Part shown: piece after piece, positions 17,082 through 34,245 of the stretch
How the letters are laid out: every line of letters begins with the position of its first letter
Numbering within the stretch: position 1 is the first letter of the stretch
Origin: Sideroxyarcus sp.
GTDB taxonomy: Bacteria; Pseudomonadota; Gammaproteobacteria; Burkholderiales; Gallionellaceae
NCBI GenBank assembly: GCA_030651895.1
Contig: JAUSBR010000009.1
Span: 62,001-126,000 of the forward strand
DNA: 64,000 nt
Direction: 5' to 3'
Program-made: the position numbers and the translations under genes
The notes under the pieces: generated by a model
What the model was told of the DNA's origin: nothing
Seen by the model: the letters and a program-made list of their open reading frames with translations, nothing else
Databases searched by the model: none

Positions 17082-17312
17082 ATGAAGAAGATACCCGCCC
17101 GCTACAGCAACATATTGTTCGGAGCCATGCTCTCCATCATCATGGTCACGATCATCTCGGGGACGGTGGTGCTGATCAATCAGGGATACGACGCGGATTT
17201 CTTCGGCCGCTGGTTCAAGGGCTTCATCACCGCCTGGCCCATCGCCTTTCCCACCGTGCTGTTCGTCGCCCCGTTCGTGCGCAGGGTGGTGGCTAGAATC
17301 ACGACGCCATAA
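17082..17312 (+). CDS. DUF2798 small membrane protein
   Basis: This is a 76-residue protein with two TM helices (about residues 10-31 and 47-66) and the DUF2798 pattern: an N-terminal basic stretch, ISGTVVLINQG, FFGRWFKGFITAW, and a basic tail. The function is unknown. A GAGGAAAATGAA region just upstream supplies the ribosome-binding site. It is the last gene of a run with SirB2, and converges on the large signalling gene with only 15 bp between stops. Confidence 0.82.
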   Translation: MKKIPARYSNILFGAMLSIIMVTIISGTVVLINQGYDADFFGRWFKGFITAWPIAFPTVLFVAPFVRRVVARITTP

Positions 17313-17327
17313 GTTGGTGACGCACAC

Positions 17328-20300
17328 TCATTGCCTATCGATACCGACCGAGTTTTTGAAGGCCGTGATGTAGGTGTAGCAGGTACGTGCATCATCAGCC
17401 AGTTCCAGAAAACTGATAATCCGTTTGCGCCAATCGCCGAAGTCAGGCTCCGCTTCCAGTTTCGACATGTCGTGAAAGCCCATGCTCCAATCCATGAACA
17501 CCCGGCGTTGGGCATCACCCTGAACCACGATGCGCACATTGCGGTGGCGCGGGTCTCTCTTTACCAGCTCCATCAGTGACAGTACCGCCTCGCGCTTGCC
17601 TTCCAGCATCTGCATGAAACAGCCATCCTGATAGAGCAGGCAACCGGTGATGCCCAGAGCCTGATTGTTCTTTCTCGAGATGCGCAGGATTTTGGCGATC
17701 TCGTCCCCGCTCATAGCTTTGCTGGTCTCGCTAACATAGAGCAGGAAGAACAGCGGAGCGCTGACTTCGGGACGTCCCTGCAGCAATTGTCGCTCGAAGT
17801 TTTCGACGAATGCCTGTGCCTCCAGTGGACGGAAGAACAGATACCCTTGGATGAAATCGCAACCGCTGGCACGCAACTCCATCAATTGCGCCTCATCCTC
17901 CACCCCTTCGGCCACAAGTTTGAGTCCGAGCGCGTGACCGAGACCGATGATGGCGCGGATCACGACGCGGCTTTCCGTTTGCTTCCCCACGCCATCCACA
18001 AAAGCCTTGTCGATCTTCAGCACACTCACCGGCATGCGCTGCAATTGTGCCAGTGAAGAATATCCGGTACCGAAGTCGTCCACCGCCACGCGCAGTCCGA
18101 GTTGCGCCAGACGGCGCAGCACCCGCAGATTGCTTTCCACATCGGCCATCAACGATGTCTCGGTGATCTCGATCAGGATGCGCGAAGGATCGGCACCGGT
18201 CTCCTTCAGGATGGCGGCGAATTCATCCGCCAGATTCTCCTCGCTCAACTGGCGCGTAGACACGTTGACCGAGATGTATGACGGGGCACGTTCACCCCAG
18301 CGCTGCCGCCAGTCAACTTCGGCCAAACACCCCTGACGGAACACCCAGGTTCCGATCGGGACGATACTGCCGGTCATCTCGGCGATGGGAATGAATACTG
18401 CAGGAGAGATATCGCCCGCGGCGGGGTGCCAGCGCAGCAACAGTTCCGCGCCGACGATGCGGCGACTATCCGCCGCCACGATGGGCTGAAAGCGACAGGA
18501 AAGTTCGTTGCGCTCGATCGCCAGACGCAGCCCCTGCGTCACTGATAGCCGCTGACGGACCTTCTCTTCGAGACTGTCGCTGAAGAACTGCCAACCGTCG
18601 CGTCCTTTTTCCTTGACTGCATACATCGCCGAATCGGCGGAACGCAACATGTCATCGGCACTGTGCGTAGTACCGTGCCCCACCGCGATGCCGATACTGC
18701 CGGTAACGAACAGCGAGACATCGCCGTATGCGACCGGCTGCCGCAGCGCGACATTGATCCGTTCGGCCAGTGCCGAGATCGATGCCGGTTGCTCCAGTTG
18801 TTCGCAGAGGATGACGAACTCGTCACCGGCCAGCCGCGCGACCGTGTCGCCGGGGCGCACTTCCTCGATGAGTCGGGCGGCGACAACTTCCAGCAGCGCG
18901 TCCCCGGCTTCATGTCCGTAGGTGTCATTGATCAGCTTGAAACCGTCTAGATCAACGAATAGCAGTGCCACACTCAGCCCTTGCCGTTGCGAACGCACCA
19001 GTGCATTGGCCAGGCGTTCGCGAATCAAAGCCCGATTCGGCAAACCGGTCAGCAAATCGTGCGAGGCTCGCCACAACATCTCTTCCTCGGCGATCTTGCG
19101 CTCGGTGATGTCGCGCATGGTGACCACCAGCAGCCACTCTCTACCGTTGTGCAGCTTTGTGATGGACGCCTCCATCGAGAAGAAACTGCCATCCTTGCGG
19201 TATCCGGTGATCTGGCTGCGCTCAGCCATGCGCCGCGTAGTCTCCGCACCTTCAACGAAACCCTGCATCAGCGCCGCATGGTTCTGGCGCAGATGCGGCG
19301 GCAACAACTGGTGAACCGGCATTCCGATCATTTCCTGCGCGGTGTAACCGAACAGATGGCACGCGCTCTGGTTGACTTCGCTGATGATGCCTTTTTCGTC
19401 GGTCGCGATGACCGCCACATCGGCGACGGCAAGGATCTGCTGTGCCGTGCCTAGCCTGCGTATGGCGGCATTCGCCTCGGCAGCGATGCGCGCCACCGCC
19501 TGCGCGGTGGGCGGCGATTCATGCAGCTTGGCACCGGCGACCTGCCCGCGGTAACGTTCGGGTATCTGTGGCGGAATACTGCCGAATCGCTCGACGATGG
19601 CAAAAGTACCATCGGCATCGCAGCGCGCAAGATAGCTGTTCACGCAGGCATGGTGCGTCAGCGCATCCATCTCCACCTCGCCCTGCGGGCCGACCACGCG
19701 CACCTTTTCAAGCGCCGCAACCAAAGCTTCCGGCTCCGTCGTGCCTGCCAGTTCCGCGGCCTGGGCGAACGCAAGCACACACAGGTAAGTGCCTTCGCCA
19801 AAATTGGTGAGGATGCCGTTACCCTTCGGCCAGATGCCGGTGATACCCGGCAGCCGCGCCAGTCGCTGCAGATAGCTGCGATTGGCCCCGGTTTCCACCG
19901 ACATGAAATAGGTATTGCTGGAATAGAAACCTTCGCGAACCTTTGGCGGCAGCCCGCTGACCATCATCTCGTCGTAATGCCCCATCACCACGGCCATGCG
20001 ATTCTTCAAGCCCATCTCGGTGAAGCGAGTCAACAGGGCGCTCTGGTCGGCACCGGCAAAATAGGGCACGAACACATCGGCACCGGAACGGGCCACATGC
20101 TCAAGCAAGCCATCGATCTCACCGGCACTGGCACCGATAGGCAAATATTCCTCACCGACGATGTCGCCCCCCAAAATACTCAGCGAGCGCTTCGCCGCAT
20201 CGATGGAGCCGCGCGGCCACTCATAGTTGCTGCCCGCGAAGAACATCTTCAGGCCGTAATGACGCGCCATGAAGGGGATCATCTTGTCGATCTGCTGGTT

Positions 20301-20696
20301 CGGCAGTGCGGCGAAGTGAAAGAAATAGCGCCCGGCGATGCTGCCCTCGTAGAAGGAGAAATTCAGATAGGGGATGCGTAGCGGCTCAGCCACCTCGCTG
20401 GCGACCGCGATTCGTGAATTGGACAGCAGATTGCCGATGATCGCGGCACAGTGATGGTGCTCGACAAGACGTAGCGCGGCGGGAACGGCGGTATCGGGCA
20501 AACTGCCATCGTCTTCGATGATGAGTTCGAGTGGCCTTCCCAAAACGCCGCCGCGCTCGTTGATCTCGTCAACGGCGATGCGCGCCGCGTTGGATATCTC
20601 CTCGCCATAAATGGCGACCAGCCCGGTCAGGGGAGGCATCAGTCCTATTCTGACCGGATCGGTCTTTGGCTGCTTTGACTGATTCACGATAAACAC
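17328..20696 (-). CDS. Ligand-binding/PAS/GGDEF/EAL/BLUF multidomain c-di-GMP signalling protein
   Basis: This is a 1122-residue protein. Residues ~13-375 form a branched-chain-amino-acid-type periplasmic-binding fold (VRIGLMPPLTG) but there is no signal peptide or TM helix, so it is probably a cytosolic sensor as in AmiC. A PAS domain (~415-530) precedes GGDEF (~545-705, AGDEF at 624-628) and EAL (~715-965, with ELL in place of EAL at 751-753 but with ITETSL, DDFGTGYSS and AEGVE kept). A C-terminal BLUF flavin domain (~982-1075) has Y987, N1011, Q1029, W1070 and M1072. It would integrate a small ligand and blue light to make or degrade c-di-GMP. Both catalytic domains look largely intact, and which activity dominates cannot be told. 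Confidence 0.93.
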   Translation of the reverse strand: MFIVNQSKQPKTDPVRIGLMPPLTGLVAIYGEEISNAARIAVDEINERGGVLGRPLELIIEDDGSLPDTAVPAALRLVEHHHCAAIIGNLLSNSRIAVASEVAEPLRIPYLNFSFYEGSIAGRYFFHFAALPNQQIDKMIPFMARHYGLKMFFAGSNYEWPRGSIDAAKRSLSILGGDIVGEEYLPIGASAGEIDGLLEHVARSGADVFVPYFAGADQSALLTRFTEMGLKNRMAVVMGHYDEMMVSGLPPKVREGFYSSNTYFMSVETGANRSYLQRLARLPGITGIWPKGNGILTNFGEGTYLCVLAFAQAAELAGTTEPEALVAALEKVRVVGPQGEVEMDALTHHACVNSYLARCDADGTFAIVERFGSIPPQIPERYRGQVAGAKLHESPPTAQAVARIAAEANAAIRRLGTAQQILAVADVAVIATDEKGIISEVNQSACHLFGYTAQEMIGMPVHQLLPPHLRQNHAALMQGFVEGAETTRRMAERSQITGYRKDGSFFSMEASITKLHNGREWLLVVTMRDITERKIAEEEMLWRASHDLLTGLPNRALIRERLANALVRSQRQGLSVALLFVDLDGFKLINDTYGHEAGDALLEVVAARLIEEVRPGDTVARLAGDEFVILCEQLEQPASISALAERINVALRQPVAYGDVSLFVTGSIGIAVGHGTTHSADDMLRSADSAMYAVKEKGRDGWQFFSDSLEEKVRQRLSVTQGLRLAIERNELSCRFQPIVAADSRRIVGAELLLRWHPAAGDISPAVFIPIAEMTGSIVPIGTWVFRQGCLAEVDWRQRWGERAPSYISVNVSTRQLSEENLADEFAAILKETGADPSRILIEITETSLMADVESNLRVLRRLAQLGLRVAVDDFGTGYSSLAQLQRMPVSVLKIDKAFVDGVGKQTESRVVIRAIIGLGHALGLKLVAEGVEDEAQLMELRASGCDFIQGYLFFRPLEAQAFVENFERQLLQGRPEVSAPLFFLLYVSETSKAMSGDEIAKILRISRKNNQALGITGCLLYQDGCFMQMLEGKREAVLSLMELVKRDPRHRNVRIVVQGDAQRRVFMDWSMGFHDMSKLEAEPDFGDWRKRIISFLELADDARTCYTYITAFKNSVGIDRQ

Positions 20697-21796: not shown

Positions 21797-23682
21797 TCCA
21801 GCTCCGATAGTCTGTGTCCGGCCAATGCGCTCTTCACGCTCTTGTCCATGCGCTTTTGCGCGAACTCGGTGGTGACCTGATTCAGGGCCTCGACCGCACG
21901 CTTGATGGCCTGATGGTCGCTGCCCGCGATCACCGCGTGCAATCCGTCCATGCTGCCGCGGATACGCGCCTGCGCGGCGGCATCCAGCAGGGCCTCGCCA
22001 TCCTGCTGCAGGGCATTATCCACCGCTTCCAGCAACTGCGCAGCCTCGGTCTGCTGCTCGCGCAGCGCGCGCGCCATCATGTCGTCGCGCGCATGCCGGT
22101 TGGAGTCGTGCAGCATGCGCGTGATCTCCTCGTCGCTCAAGCCGTACGAGGGCTTGACCACGATGCTCGCCTCGGTGCCGCTCGCCATCTCGCGCGCGGA
22201 GACGCTGAGCAGGCCGTCGGCATCTATCTGAAAGGTGACGCGAATACGCGCCGACCCGGCCACCATCGCCGGGATGCCGCGCAGTTCGAACTTCGCCAGC
22301 GAACGGCAATCGCTCACCAGTTCGCGCTCGCCCTGCACCACGTGGATGCTCATCGCGGTCTGGCCGTCCTTGTAGGTGGTGAACTCCTGCGCGCGGGCGC
22401 TGGGGATGGTGCTGTTGCGGGGTACGATCTTTTCGACCAGCCCGCCCATGGTCTCGATGCCCAGGCTGAGCGGGATGACATCGAGCAGCAACCAGTCTTC
22501 GCCGCTGCGGTTGCCTGCCAACACGTTGGCCTGGATCGCCGCGCCAAGCGCCACCACCTTGTCCGGATCGAGATTATTCAACGGCGATTGTCCGAAGAAG
22601 TCACCGACCGCCTGCTGGATATGCGGCATGCGCGTCGCGCCGCCCACCATCACCACACCCTTGACCTCGGACGCGGTCAGCTTGGCGTCGCGCAATGCCT
22701 TGCGCAGCGCCTGCAGGGTTCGCTGCACCAGGTTCTGCGACATTTCGTGGAATTCGGCGCGGGTGAGCACATTGTCGATGACCTCGCCGCTGGACAGCAC
22801 GGCCGTAACACGTGTTTCCAGATGATCGGTCAGTTGTTCCTTGGCGGTGCGCGCATGGGTCAGCAAGGAACGGATATCCGGCGCGGGCAAAGCGGAAAGG
22901 CCGTTTTTCTCCAAAAGCCGGCAATAGATGCGGTGGTCGAAATCGTCGCCGCCCAGCCCCGAGTCGCCGTTGGTCGCCAACACTTCGAACACGCCGCGCG
23001 ACAGGCGCAGGATGGAGATATCGAAAGTGCCGCCGCCGAGGTCGTATACCGCGTACACGCCTTCGGCCGCGTTATCCAGCCCGTAGGCGATCGCGGCGGC
23101 GGTGGGTTCGTTGAGCAGGCGCAGCACATTCAGTCCGGCCAGTTTCGCCGCATCCTTGGTCGCCTGACGCTGCGCATCGTCGAAGTAGGCGGGCACGGTG
23201 ATCACCGCGCCGACCAGTTCTCCGCCGAGCGCCAGCTCGGCACGGACGCGCAACACCCGGAGTATCTCGGCGGAGACTTCGACCGGACTCTTCACGCCCG
23301 CCGCCGTGCGCAACTGCAGCATTCCCGGTGCCTGTCCTGAGCTTGTCGAAGGAGCCTCGACGAAACGGTAGGGCAGATTGCTGACGTCGCCGACATCCTT
23401 GAGACCGCGCCCCATGAAGCGTTTCACCGAGACGATGGTGTTGTGCGGATAGGCGGTCTGCTCTTCCTGCGCCAGTTGACCGACCAGCACTTCGCCGTCC
23501 GCTGCGTAATGCACCACGGAAGGCAGCAATGCGCAGCCCTGCTCGTCGTTCAGCACCGTACTGATGCCGCTACGCACGGTGGCTACAAGTGAATTGGTGG
23601 TGCCTAGGTCGATGCCGACGGCCAGGCGGTGCTGGTGCGGTTCGGCGCTGAGGCCGGGTTCTGATATCTGGAGCAGTGCCAT
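21793..23682 (-). CDS. hscA: Fe-S assembly chaperone HscA (Hsp70 type)
   Basis: This 629-residue DnaK-like ATPase takes the IscU LPPVK motif as substrate, and with HscB drives cluster release. Nucleotide-binding motifs are [26 protein letters not shown] and [11 protein letters not shown]. The substrate-binding domain starts near [14 protein letters not shown]. At about residues 111-118 there is an 8-residue insert, PSTSSGQA, between VEA and PGMLQL. It comes from a dispersed DNA repeat arm (separate entry) and lies on the nucleotide-binding domain. The rest of the protein is normal. Confidence 0.96.
23329..23352. repeat. Single repeat arm inserted in frame in hscA
   Basis: On the minus strand the 24 nt read CCTTCGACAAGCTCAGGACA plus GGCA. 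This is one arm of the repeat present in mutS and mfd. Removing it restores a continuous HscA alignment (VEA|PGM). The insert is flanked by similar GCTCC/GCACC pentamers, compatible with a small target duplication. Confidence 0.75.
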
Positions 23683-31578: not shown

Positions 31579-34245
31579 ATGTCCGACACCGCACTCGAAA
31601 AACACACGCCCATGATGCAGCAGTACCTGCGACTGAAGGCAGACCACGCCGACAAGTTGCTGTTCTACCGCATGGGCGACTTCTACGAACTGTTCCATGA
31701 CGACGCCGTGCGCGTCGCCAAACTGCTCGACATCACCCTCACCCAACGCGGCGCCTCCAACGGCCAGCCGATCAAGATGGCGGGTGTGCCCTATCACGCC
31801 GCCGAGCAATACCTCGCGCGATTGGTGAAGATGGGCGAGTCGGTCGCCATCTGCGAACAGATCGGCGACCCCGCTACCAGCAAAGGCCCGGTCGAACGCA
31901 AAGTCGTGCGCATCGTCACCCCCGGCACCGTCACCGACTCCGCATTGCTCGAAGAGAAGCGCGACAACCTGCTGCTCGCGCTGCACCAGCGCAACAACGA
32001 AGTCGGCCTCGCCTGGCTCAACCTCGCCGCAGGCACCTTCACCCTCGCCGAAGTCGCCGCCAAACAACTGCCCGCCGAACTCGAACGCCTGCAACCTTCC
32101 GAGATTCTCTACGCCGAAAGCTCCACTGCGCCGCAGTTCAGGAACGCGGCAAGTAAATCCCTGCCCGAGTGGCACTTCGCCCGCGACACCGCGCACCGTG
32201 CGCTGTGCCAGCAATTCGGCACACGCGACCTCGCCGGATTCGGCTGTGACGATTTCTCTGTGGGTTTGGAAGCCGCAGGCGCACTGCTCGGCTACGCCAA
32301 ACTGACCCAGGGCCAGAGCATCGCCCACATCCGCAGCGCGCAGGTCTATCACGCCGACGAATACGTGCGCATGGACGCCGCCACAAGACGCAACCTGGAG
32401 ATCACCCAGACCCTGCGCGGCGAACCCGCGCCGACCTTGCTCTCGCTGCTCGACACCTGCGGCACCAACATGGGCAGCCGTTTGCTGGCGCACTGGCTGC
32501 ATCATCCGTTGCGTAACCGGACAACGCTGCAAGCCAGACTGGATGCAGTCGAACAACTGGGCAGCCTGCACCACACCGTGCGTGAACAACTCAAACCCAG
32601 CGTGGACGTGGAACGCATCACCGCCCGTATCGCGCTGCGCAGTGCAAGGCCGCGCGACCTCTCCGGTTTGCGCGAGACGCTCAAGACCTTGCCGCAGTTG
32701 CACACGCTGCTGGCAAACGTGGATGCGCCACGCATCAAACACCTGGCCGCCGAACTTAACCAAACAGCCCCTCACCAGACCGTTCGTCCTGAGCCTGTCG
32801 AAGGATCGGCGCAAAGCGCCGGCGGACCTGAAGGTACCCACCAGACCGGCGCGCCCGCCAACCCTTCGACAGGCTCAGGGCGAACGGGAATAGAGTTAGT
32901 GGAGTTGCTACAAAGAACAATCAAAGAAGAGCCCTCCTCCGTATTAAGAGAAGGCAGCGTAATCGCCGACGGCTTCGACGCCGAGCTGGACGAACTACGC
33001 GGCATCCAGACCAACTGCGGCGATTTCCTGATGGAATTGGAACTGCGCGAACGCGCCCGCACCGGCATCGATAAACTGAAAGTTGAATACAACCGCGTCC
33101 ACGGCTTCTACATCGAGGTCAGCTTTGCCAATGCCGACAAGGTACCGGACGACTACCGCCGCCGCCAGACGCTGAAGAACGTCGAGCGCTACATCACGCC
33201 GGAACTCAAGGCCTTCGAGGACAAAGCGCTCTCCGCCAACGACCGCGCACTGGCGCGCGAAAAATTCCTCTACGAACAACTGCTCGACCAGCTCGCGCCC
33301 TTCATCCCGCAACTGCAGCGCATCGCCGCCGCCATCGCCGAGCTGGACGTGCTCGCCACCTTCGCCGAACGCGCCGCCACGCTCAACTTCTGCGCGCCGC
33401 AGTTCAGCGACGACGCGCAACTCGTCATCAAGCAAGGCCGTCATCCGGTGGTGCAAGCGCAAGTGGACACCTTCACCCCCAACGACACCACGCTCAACGA
33501 CGCGCGCCGCACACTGCTCATCACCGGCCCCAACATGGGCGGTAAATCGACCTACATGCGCCAGGTCGCCATCATCGCGCTGCTCGCGCATGTCGGCTGC
33601 TTCGTCCCCGCGCAGGCAGCGGTGCTGGGCGAGATTGACCAGATATTCACGCGCATCGGCGCATCGGACGACCTAGCCTCCGGACGTTCCACCTTCATGG
33701 TCGAGATGACCGAGGCCGCCAACATCCTGCACAACGCCACCGAAAAGAGTCTGGTACTGGTGGACGAGATCGGGCGCGGTACCAGCACCTTCGACGGTCT
33801 CGCCCTCGCCTACGCCATCGCGCGCCACCTGCTGGAGATCAACCGCAGCTACACCCTGTTCGCCACGCACTATTTCGAACTCACGCGGCTGGCCGAAGAA
33901 TTCACTCAGCTCGCCAACGTCCACCTCGCCGCCATCGAACACCAGCACAGCATCGTCTTCCTGCACTCTGTGAACGAAGGCGCCGCCAGCCAGAGCTACG
34001 GCCTGCAAGTCGCCGCACTCGCGGGCGTGCCGAACAGCGTCATTCGCTCTGCGAAGAAACAACTGGTGAAACTGGAACAGAACAGCGCCGCACAAAACCC
34101 ACAGGGTGACCTCTTCACCGCCGCGCCGGAAGCACCGGAGCCGGAAGAACATCCGCTGCTGTCGGCACTGCGCGACCTGCAGCCGGATGAGATGAGTCCG
34201 AAGGAAGCGCTGGAGAGGATTTATCAGTTGAAGAAGTTGGTGTAG
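31579..34245 (+). CDS. mutS: DNA mismatch repair protein MutS
   Basis: This is an 888-residue mismatch-recognition ATPase. The mismatch-reading [10 protein letters not shown] motif is near residue 30, Walker [17 protein letters not shown] near 650, [12 protein letters not shown] near 728, and the [10 protein letters not shown] box follows. The dimer/MutL-contact tail ends in [13 protein letters not shown]. The start was set at the ATG before [11 protein letters not shown]; a longer frame overlaps the thioesterase gene. Residues ~401-437 are a foreign insert read from a palindromic repeat, between LAAELNQ and [13 protein letters not shown] in the helical lever region. Otherwise the protein appears intact. 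Confidence 0.97.
32781..32887. repeat. Complete palindromic repeat inserted in frame in mutS
   Basis: The left arm CGTTCGTCCTGAGCCTGTCG+AAGG (32781-32804) and the right arm CCTTCGACAGGCTCAGGGCG+AACGG (32863-32887) are inverted copies of each other. A central segment contains a second small hairpin (CGGCGCAAAGCGCCG). Read in the MutS frame it gives RPEPVEG at one end and [10 protein letters not shown] at the other, with no stop. Confidence 0.88.

What the first reader, a model, noticed from the sequence alone, without database searches (positions are those of the whole stretch)
17328..20696. Five-domain PBP-PAS-GGDEF-EAL-BLUF signalling protein without a membrane anchor
The sequence shows a branched-chain-amino-acid-binding-like fold, PAS, GGDEF with AGDEF, EAL with ELL at 751-753, and a BLUF domain retaining Y987, N1011, Q1029, W1070 and M1072. 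BLUF domains are commonly found alone or with EAL; a C-terminal BLUF joined to a ligand-binding domain and both c-di-GMP domains would let one protein combine a chemical input and blue light. There is no signal peptide or TM segment, so the binding domain is probably cytosolic.
Basis: partly seen in the sequence, partly recalled or inferred. Interest (0 to 1): 0.85.

Follow-up and report, generated by a model that had tools for sequence, protein, structure and literature searches.

The report
Light-sensing c-di-GMP enzyme, BldP family
A bacterium related to iron-oxidising Gallionella carries a five-part signalling protein that probably breaks down the messenger c-di-GMP when it sees blue light; it is a relative of the already characterised BldP proteins, although what its small-molecule-binding part recognises is still unknown.

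Summary
A 1122-aa ORF at 17328-20696, minus strand, encodes PBP (14-363), PAS (~420-534), GGDEF (544-700), EAL (723-957) and BLUF (982-1073), all far above Pfam cut-offs. The suggestion that the order is unusual does not hold: a scan with the PBP domain found the same five-domain order in 46 of 80 loci from at least four phyla. A review lists BldP of both species as a blue-light-activated phosphodiesterase (PMC8846402). So it is a new member of a known kind: a predicted blue-light-activated c-di-GMP phosphodiesterase. Two points go further. A histidine at the FixL/DosP haem-ligand position is invariant in 64 of 64 c-di-GMP members compared. The cytosolic PBP module, ligand unknown, keeps 124 positions nearly invariant across c-di-GMP and kinase proteins from nine phyla.

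The parts
17328..20696 (-). whole gene, 1122 aa: PBP-PAS-GGDEF-EAL-BLUF (BldP-family) protein
   Evidence: ORF; Pfam; homologues
19608..20657 (-). type I periplasmic-binding-protein fold, residues 14-363, no signal peptide seen, AmiC/UrtA-like
   Evidence: Peripla_BP_6 2.4e-67; AmiC and urea-binding proteins by sequence and fold
19095..19439 (-). PAS domain, residues 420-534, with His473 at the FixL/DosP haem-ligand position
   Evidence: Pfam; best PDB relatives FixL, then DosP; H473 in 64 of 64
18597..19067 (-). GGDEF domain, residues 544-700, AGDEF 623-627, I-site RxxD 614-617
   Evidence: Pfam; motif tally
17826..18530 (-). EAL domain, residues 723-957, ELL 751-753, catalytic residues kept
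   Evidence: Pfam; motif tally
17478..17753 (-). BLUF domain, residues 982-1073, with Y987, N1011, Q1029, W1070, M1072
   Evidence: PF04940 4.7e-30; tally; PDB relatives
17331..17477 (-). C-terminal stretch after BLUF, residues 1074-1122, partly helical (possible BLUF cap helices)
   Evidence: secondary structure in the model, low to middling confidence; role by analogy with BlrP1

Best explanation
The gene encodes a soluble, cytosolic, multi-input c-di-GMP switch of the BldP family. Shown here: intact BLUF, EAL and GGDEF signature residues, full collinearity with the proteins that match A. vinosum and M. marinus BldP, and strong conservation of the PBP and PAS domains. Inferred: FAD in the BLUF domain absorbs blue light, the C-terminal BLUF and its cap helices push on the EAL dimer, and c-di-GMP hydrolysis rises, lowering c-di-GMP and favouring the motile state. 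The N-terminal PBP closes on an unidentified cytosolic metabolite, and the PAS, possibly a haem-type PAS, reports oxygen or redox state. Both set how strongly the GGDEF-EAL core responds to light. The GGDEF domain is either a working cyclase with product inhibition (AGDEF, RxxD) or a GTP-binding regulator of the EAL domain.
For: Pfam placement of all five domains. Residue tally in 50 distinct five-domain proteins: EAL E751, N811, E843, E846, D873, D874, K894, E930, E933, Q950 50 of 50; BLUF Y987, S989, N1011, Q1029, W1070 50 of 50, M1072 49 of 50; GGDEF D625 50, E626 49, I-site R614 47 of 50. Identity 58.2% over 1101 aligned positions to the 1124-aa protein of the genome with a 3,526,903-bp contig, and 57.1% over 1099 to that of the genome with a 4,719,581-bp contig; the two are only 52% identical to each other. 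All 8 genomes of the Allochromatium group searched have exactly one BLUF frame of 1122-1155 aa; 4 of these 8 were checked domain by domain and two more (L101, L125). PMC8846402 Table 1 lists BldP of both species as blue (+), BLUF/FAD, PDE. PAS nearest in PDB: FixL, then DosP. No signal peptide seen.
Against: No activity was or could be measured. The FixL distal arginine is not clearly aligned in this PAS (alignments), so O2 binding is uncertain. BLUF is missing from 12 of the 80 loci that do have PBP-PAS-GGDEF-EAL, so the core works without light input in some bacteria. The GGDEF motif is altered in a few members (E626A in 1, G624 replaced in 7 of 50). The gene is patchy within its genus: 5 of 33 other genomes searched have it.
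Confidence: 0.85

Rival explanations
1. The protein is mainly a light-regulated diguanylate cyclase: BLUF at the C-terminus turns GGDEF off or on, and EAL is secondary.
For: AGDEF motif, Mg-binding D582 and I-site RxxD are kept in the window protein; GGDEF is as conserved as EAL (mean pairwise identity 0.625 against 0.609).
Against: BLUF lies next to EAL; EAL residues are fully kept in 50 of 50 while the GGDEF motif varies in a few; BldP is listed as PDE.
Confidence: 0.1
2. The PBP is not a ligand sensor but a structural or dimerisation module, and light is the only input.
For: No ligand is known; none of the four neighbour clusters shared by four or more of 50 loci looks like a transport system (judged by eye from one representative each).
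Against: 124 PBP positions have at most 2 exceptions in 81 sequences, among them positions that align with the ligand cleft of AmiC (role recalled), and this holds also in kinases of the same PBP family. The 81 were kept for PBP similarity, so the number is inflated.
Confidence: 0.15
3. The PAS is an ordinary cofactor-free or FAD-binding signal relay rather than a haem PAS, and any oxygen effect acts through flavin chemistry in BLUF.
For: A His at this column also occurs in 7 of 26 control PAS domains that cover it; the FixL distal Arg is not clearly matched; RmcA, another PBP-PAS-GGDEF-EAL protein, is listed with PAS/FAD (PMC8846402 Table 1).
Against: H473 is invariant in 64 of 64 c-di-GMP members but present in only 2 of 14 other members of the same PBP family, mostly kinases; the closest solved PAS domains are haem sensors.
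Confidence: 0.45

Closest known systems
BldP (Allochromatium vinosum, Magnetococcus marinus), blue-light-activated c-di-GMP phosphodiesterase; Ryu et al. 2017 (paper not held; listed in PMC8846402, passages seen)
   Same: Full-length collinear five-domain proteins in size-matched genomes, 58% and 57% identity; EAL-BLUF C-terminus with all key residues.
   Different: Window protein comes from a Gallionellaceae genome; its own activity is untested; the RxxD I-site is present here but its Arg is lost in the M. marinus-like protein.
BlrP1 (Klebsiella) and BluF/YcgF (E. coli), BLUF-EAL
   Same: BLUF coupled to EAL.
   Different: In BlrP1 the BLUF lies before the EAL and PBP, PAS and GGDEF are absent (recalled); BlrP1 matches this BLUF only weakly (E 1.6e-08).
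RmcA (P. aeruginosa PA0575; number recalled), PBP-PAS-GGDEF-EAL
   Same: PBP, PAS, GGDEF and EAL in one protein; the PA0575 GGDEF-EAL structure 5m3c is 41% identical.
   Different: Its PBP is SBP_bac_3 and senses arginine, in a clan described as periplasmic (PMC8846402 passages), and it has no BLUF (recalled).
AmiC (P. aeruginosa) amide sensor, and urea-binding proteins (UrtA)
   Same: PBP fold and nearest sequence and fold relatives; AmiC is a precedent for a cytosolic PBP sensor (recalled).
   Different: 26-27% identity; several aligned cleft positions differ (e.g. N112, W160, roles recalled), so amide or urea is not implied.
FixL / DosP haem PAS
   Same: Best PDB relatives of this PAS; H473 aligns with the FixL His that binds haem (role recalled).
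   Different: Haem binding untested; distal Arg not clearly conserved.

Membership tests
BldP family | C-terminal EAL-BLUF module with intact catalytic and photochemical residues | tested here: met
BldP family | full-length collinearity with the A. vinosum and M. marinus proteins | tested here: met
BldP family | blue light raises c-di-GMP phosphodiesterase activity | not testable with these tools
   needs purified protein; literature on the homologues only
BldP family | oxygen dependence of light activation | not testable with these tools
   recalled from the abstract of Ryu et al. 2017, not seen here
BLUF photoreceptor (PF04940) | profile match over the gathering score and the Tyr, Asn, Gln, Trp, Met set | tested here: met
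   104 bits against cut-off 25; residues present in the window protein and in 50 of 50 homologues, Met 49 of 50
AmiC/UrtA-like type I PBP | sequence and fold relation | tested here: met
   (TM by target 0.85-0.90)
AmiC/UrtA-like type I PBP | binds short amides or urea | not testable with these tools
   some aligned cleft residues differ from AmiC (roles recalled)
FixL/DosP haem PAS | proximal His ligand | tested here: met
   H473 aligned to the FixL His, 64 of 64
FixL/DosP haem PAS | haem bound, gas-sensitive | not testable with these tools
   needs spectroscopy
RmcA-type periplasmic PBP receptors | periplasmic PBP behind a TM helix | tested here: not met
   no signal peptide or TM segment by open frame and hydropathy

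The most novel reading that the evidence does not exclude
The family is a three-input integrator: a cytosolic PBP module that reads one and the same unidentified metabolite in nine phyla and feeds both c-di-GMP and histidine-kinase outputs, a haem PAS that reads oxygen, and BLUF that reads blue light. The haem PAS would explain why BldP light activation was reported (recalled) to depend on oxygen.
Probability: 0.3. Interest if true: 0.65.

Novelty: new member of a known kind. Interest (0 to 1): 0.35.

Why it matters
As a member of the BldP family it is not new in kind. It matters because it ties a light-activated c-di-GMP enzyme, from which the optogenetic tool EB1 was made (PMC8846402 passage), to a large natural family, and shows that its two uncharacterised domains are under strong constraint. 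The invariant PAS histidine makes the recalled oxygen dependence of BldP directly testable. The strongly conserved cytosolic PBP is an orphan receptor whose ligand could be found by a metabolite screen. Close relatives that lack only BLUF give a natural comparison for what light adds.

Tried and rejected
Rejected: that the architecture is rare in sequence data. Rejected: a conserved operon. Of 402 neighbouring ORFs within 5 kb in 50 loci, GGDEF-like ones occur in 11 loci (a looser cluster spans 18 loci); the other clusters shared by four or more loci span only 5, 5 and 4 loci, and one of these (ribonucleotide reductase, named by eye) is confined to the window's family. Rejected: an upstream start that adds a signal peptide (open frame 1127 aa). 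The PBP-only AlphaFold model was poor (mean pLDDT 62) and was not used. Promoter and terminator scan uninformative. Pfam was run on 9 of the 20 census proteins that are neither five-domain nor GGDEF-EAL; the other 11 were classed only by similarity, and L124 and L126 are cut by contig ends.

Biases and limits: the 80 loci were kept by PBP similarity out of 121 confirmed, so PBP identity (0.70 mean) and invariance are inflated. In 8 other-genus homologues first found through BLUF and read domain by domain (L036, L037, L046, L047, L140-L143) PBP is still more alike than BLUF in 8 of 8. BLUF listings are cut, so their long-frame counts are lower bounds. Of the 12 loci called BLUF-less, L054 shows only 202 bases after its stop codon, the others 761 or more. 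The PAS control has 30 domains, of which 26 cover the column (3 with a gap there).

Full report
The observation. The window holds an ORF of 1122 aa at 17328-20696 on the minus strand with a GTG start. Pfam places Peripla_BP_6 at 14-363, PAS models within 420-534, GGDEF at 544-700, EAL at 723-957 and BLUF at 982-1073, each well above its cut-off. The frame opens only 5 codons before the start (1127 aa) and the N-terminus is not hydrophobic, so the PBP is most likely cytosolic; no dedicated predictor was run. A full-length AlphaFold model folds all five domains (mean pLDDT 84, pTM 0.44), so the domains are credible but their arrangement is not settled.

Where it occurs. The window lies in a 2.13 Mb genome of 17 contigs, 73% complete, with this as its only BLUF hit. 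The nearest named contig, identical in the PBP domain, is a Gallionellaceae MAG. Of 33 other genomes of the genus searched, five carry the gene: G003, G006, G008 and G017 intact, and G027 with an N-containing assembly gap that splits the frame. So the gene is patchy. In 399 genomes of the order, 133 have BLUF and at least 4, the window's included, have it in a frame over 1000 aa; in 398 of the phylum, 119 and at least 3, again with the window's (listings cut). The others of these, read as L031, L036, L037, L046 and L047, are all five-domain proteins.

How common the architecture is. A scan of genome contigs with an alignment of the PBP domain confirmed 121 relatives, of which 80 loci were kept. 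Of these 80, 46 have all five domains in the same order; some are contigs of genomes already met, and one genome (LM-1) gives two loci. Two more (L050, split by the gap; L104, cut at a contig end as BLUF begins) very probably do. Twelve end after EAL with no BLUF found downstream (L054 shows only 202 bases there); L094 is cut inside EAL. The remaining 19 do not show GGDEF-EAL: of 9 examined by Pfam, 8 are PBP-PAS histidine kinases and one has GGDEF only; 10 were not examined, two of them cut by contig ends. Five-domain proteins come from alpha-, beta- and gammaproteobacteria, Thermodesulfobacteriota, and single MAG contigs of Nitrospirota and Myxococcota. Named organisms include Methylomonas, Methylotuvimicrobium, Magnetospirillum, Desulfamplus, Azoarcus, Thiorhodospira, Allochromatium and Marichromatium. 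A quick tree of the PBP domain separates a c-di-GMP branch from a kinase branch with one exception and weak deep support, and the BLUF label needs 6 to 7 changes on it (at least 2 forced by well-supported branches), so BLUF has been lost, or gained, more than once.

What is known. A 2022 review lists BldP of Allochromatium vinosum and Magnetococcus marinus as BLUF/FAD phosphodiesterases activated by blue light, and EB1 as a synthetic derivative (PMC8846402, passages seen); it also calls BLUF rare among GGDEF and EAL proteins. The primary paper, Ryu et al. 2017, is not held. From memory its abstract says that both proteins have C-terminal EAL-BLUF modules, that light activation depended on oxygen, and that the M. 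marinus EAL-BLUF fragment EB1 is strongly light-activated. A 2014 review reports one BLUF-GGDEF/EAL protein in Methylomicrobium alcaliphilum and says that BLUF proteins are mostly short (64%) or carry EAL (34%) (PMC4844311, section 2.2 read). The genome G437 has a single contig of 4,719,581 bp and G806 a contig of 3,526,903 bp, the sizes I recall for M. marinus MC-1 and A. vinosum DSM 180. Both carry the collinear five-domain protein as their only long BLUF protein, 57% and 58% identical to the window's over ~1100 positions and 52% to each other. All 8 genomes of the Allochromatium group have exactly one BLUF frame of that length. This makes the window protein a BldP-family member. Ten paper searches gave listings only; I looked into three papers (PMC8846402 and PMC4477167 passages, PMC4844311 passages and one section) and saw no description of the five-domain order there. 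That is not proof that none is in print.

Function of the parts. In 50 distinct five-domain proteins the EAL metal and substrate residues and the BLUF flavin residues are invariant (M1072 in 49), and the GGDEF motif and I-site are nearly so. The PAS domain finds FixL first and DosP further down among solved structures, and H473 aligns with the FixL histidine that binds haem (role recalled). H473 is kept in 64 of 64 c-di-GMP members, in 2 of 14 other members of the PBP family, mostly kinases, whose first PAS covers the column (leaving out L050 and L068, both H, and two cut ones), and in 7 of 26 control PAS domains that cover it. This favours a haem PAS but does not show one. The PBP is AmiC/UrtA-like in sequence and fold, with 124 positions nearly invariant (at most two exceptions) in 81 sequences of both branches, including runs that align with the AmiC cleft. 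The set was chosen by PBP similarity, so this is inflated. The ligand is unknown and several cleft positions differ from AmiC.

Mechanism. Most likely, blue light raises EAL activity through the C-terminal BLUF, as reported for BldP, while PBP and PAS tune the response to a metabolite and to oxygen or redox. The light step rests on homologues; the ligand and oxygen steps are inference. No gene is conserved next door: GGDEF-like neighbours lie within 5 kb in 11 of 50 loci. In L029, L030 and L031 one starts 22-142 bp downstream on the same strand, while in the window a 76-aa ORF on the opposite strand (17082-17312) lies there.

Verdict. Interest is moderate, and lies in the orphan PBP ligand and the possible haem PAS rather than in the domain order.

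Noticed in passing
window 23336-23350 (-), 32788-32802 (-), 32865-32879 (+): The repeat TTCGACA[AG][AG]CTCAGG sits inside the coding sequence of an hscA-like gene and, as an inverted pair, inside a mutS-like gene (gene names by eye), adding stretches such as [10 protein letters not shown] and VRPEPVEG...PSTGSGRTG. Three exact matches; 0.48 expected by chance with up to 2 mismatches, and 3 of 100 shuffles reached three. The hscA copy is also in the near-identical genome G027.
   Followed up: partly
L029:10530-11378, L030:6470-7255, L031:6543-7262: In three genus relatives a 239-282 aa GGDEF protein starts 22-142 bp downstream of the BldP-like gene on the same strand; the window lacks it there.
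   Followed up: partly
L082, L086, L087, L092, L093, L095, L098, L103, L113, L114, L121, L127: The same strongly conserved PBP domain (66-72% identical to the window's) also heads proteins without GGDEF-EAL. 8 of these 12 were confirmed as PBP-PAS histidine kinases by Pfam (L086, L087, L093, L095, L098, L113, L114, L127); L082, L092, L103 and L121 were not scanned. They include Acidobacteriota, Planctomycetota, Spirochaetota and Fidelibacterota MAGs: an orphan sensor family.
   Followed up: partly
L038:4004-6529: A relative with two PAS-like stretches instead of the PBP: PAS-PAS-GGDEF-EAL-BLUF, 841 aa, GGDEF and EAL 60-64% identical, so the GGDEF-EAL-BLUF core takes other sensor heads.
   Followed up: no
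L054, L066, L058, L065: Close relatives whose PBP, PAS, GGDEF and EAL domains are 61-81% identical but which stop right after EAL with no BLUF found downstream (L054 shows only 202 bases there): possible natural light-blind versions.
   Followed up: partly
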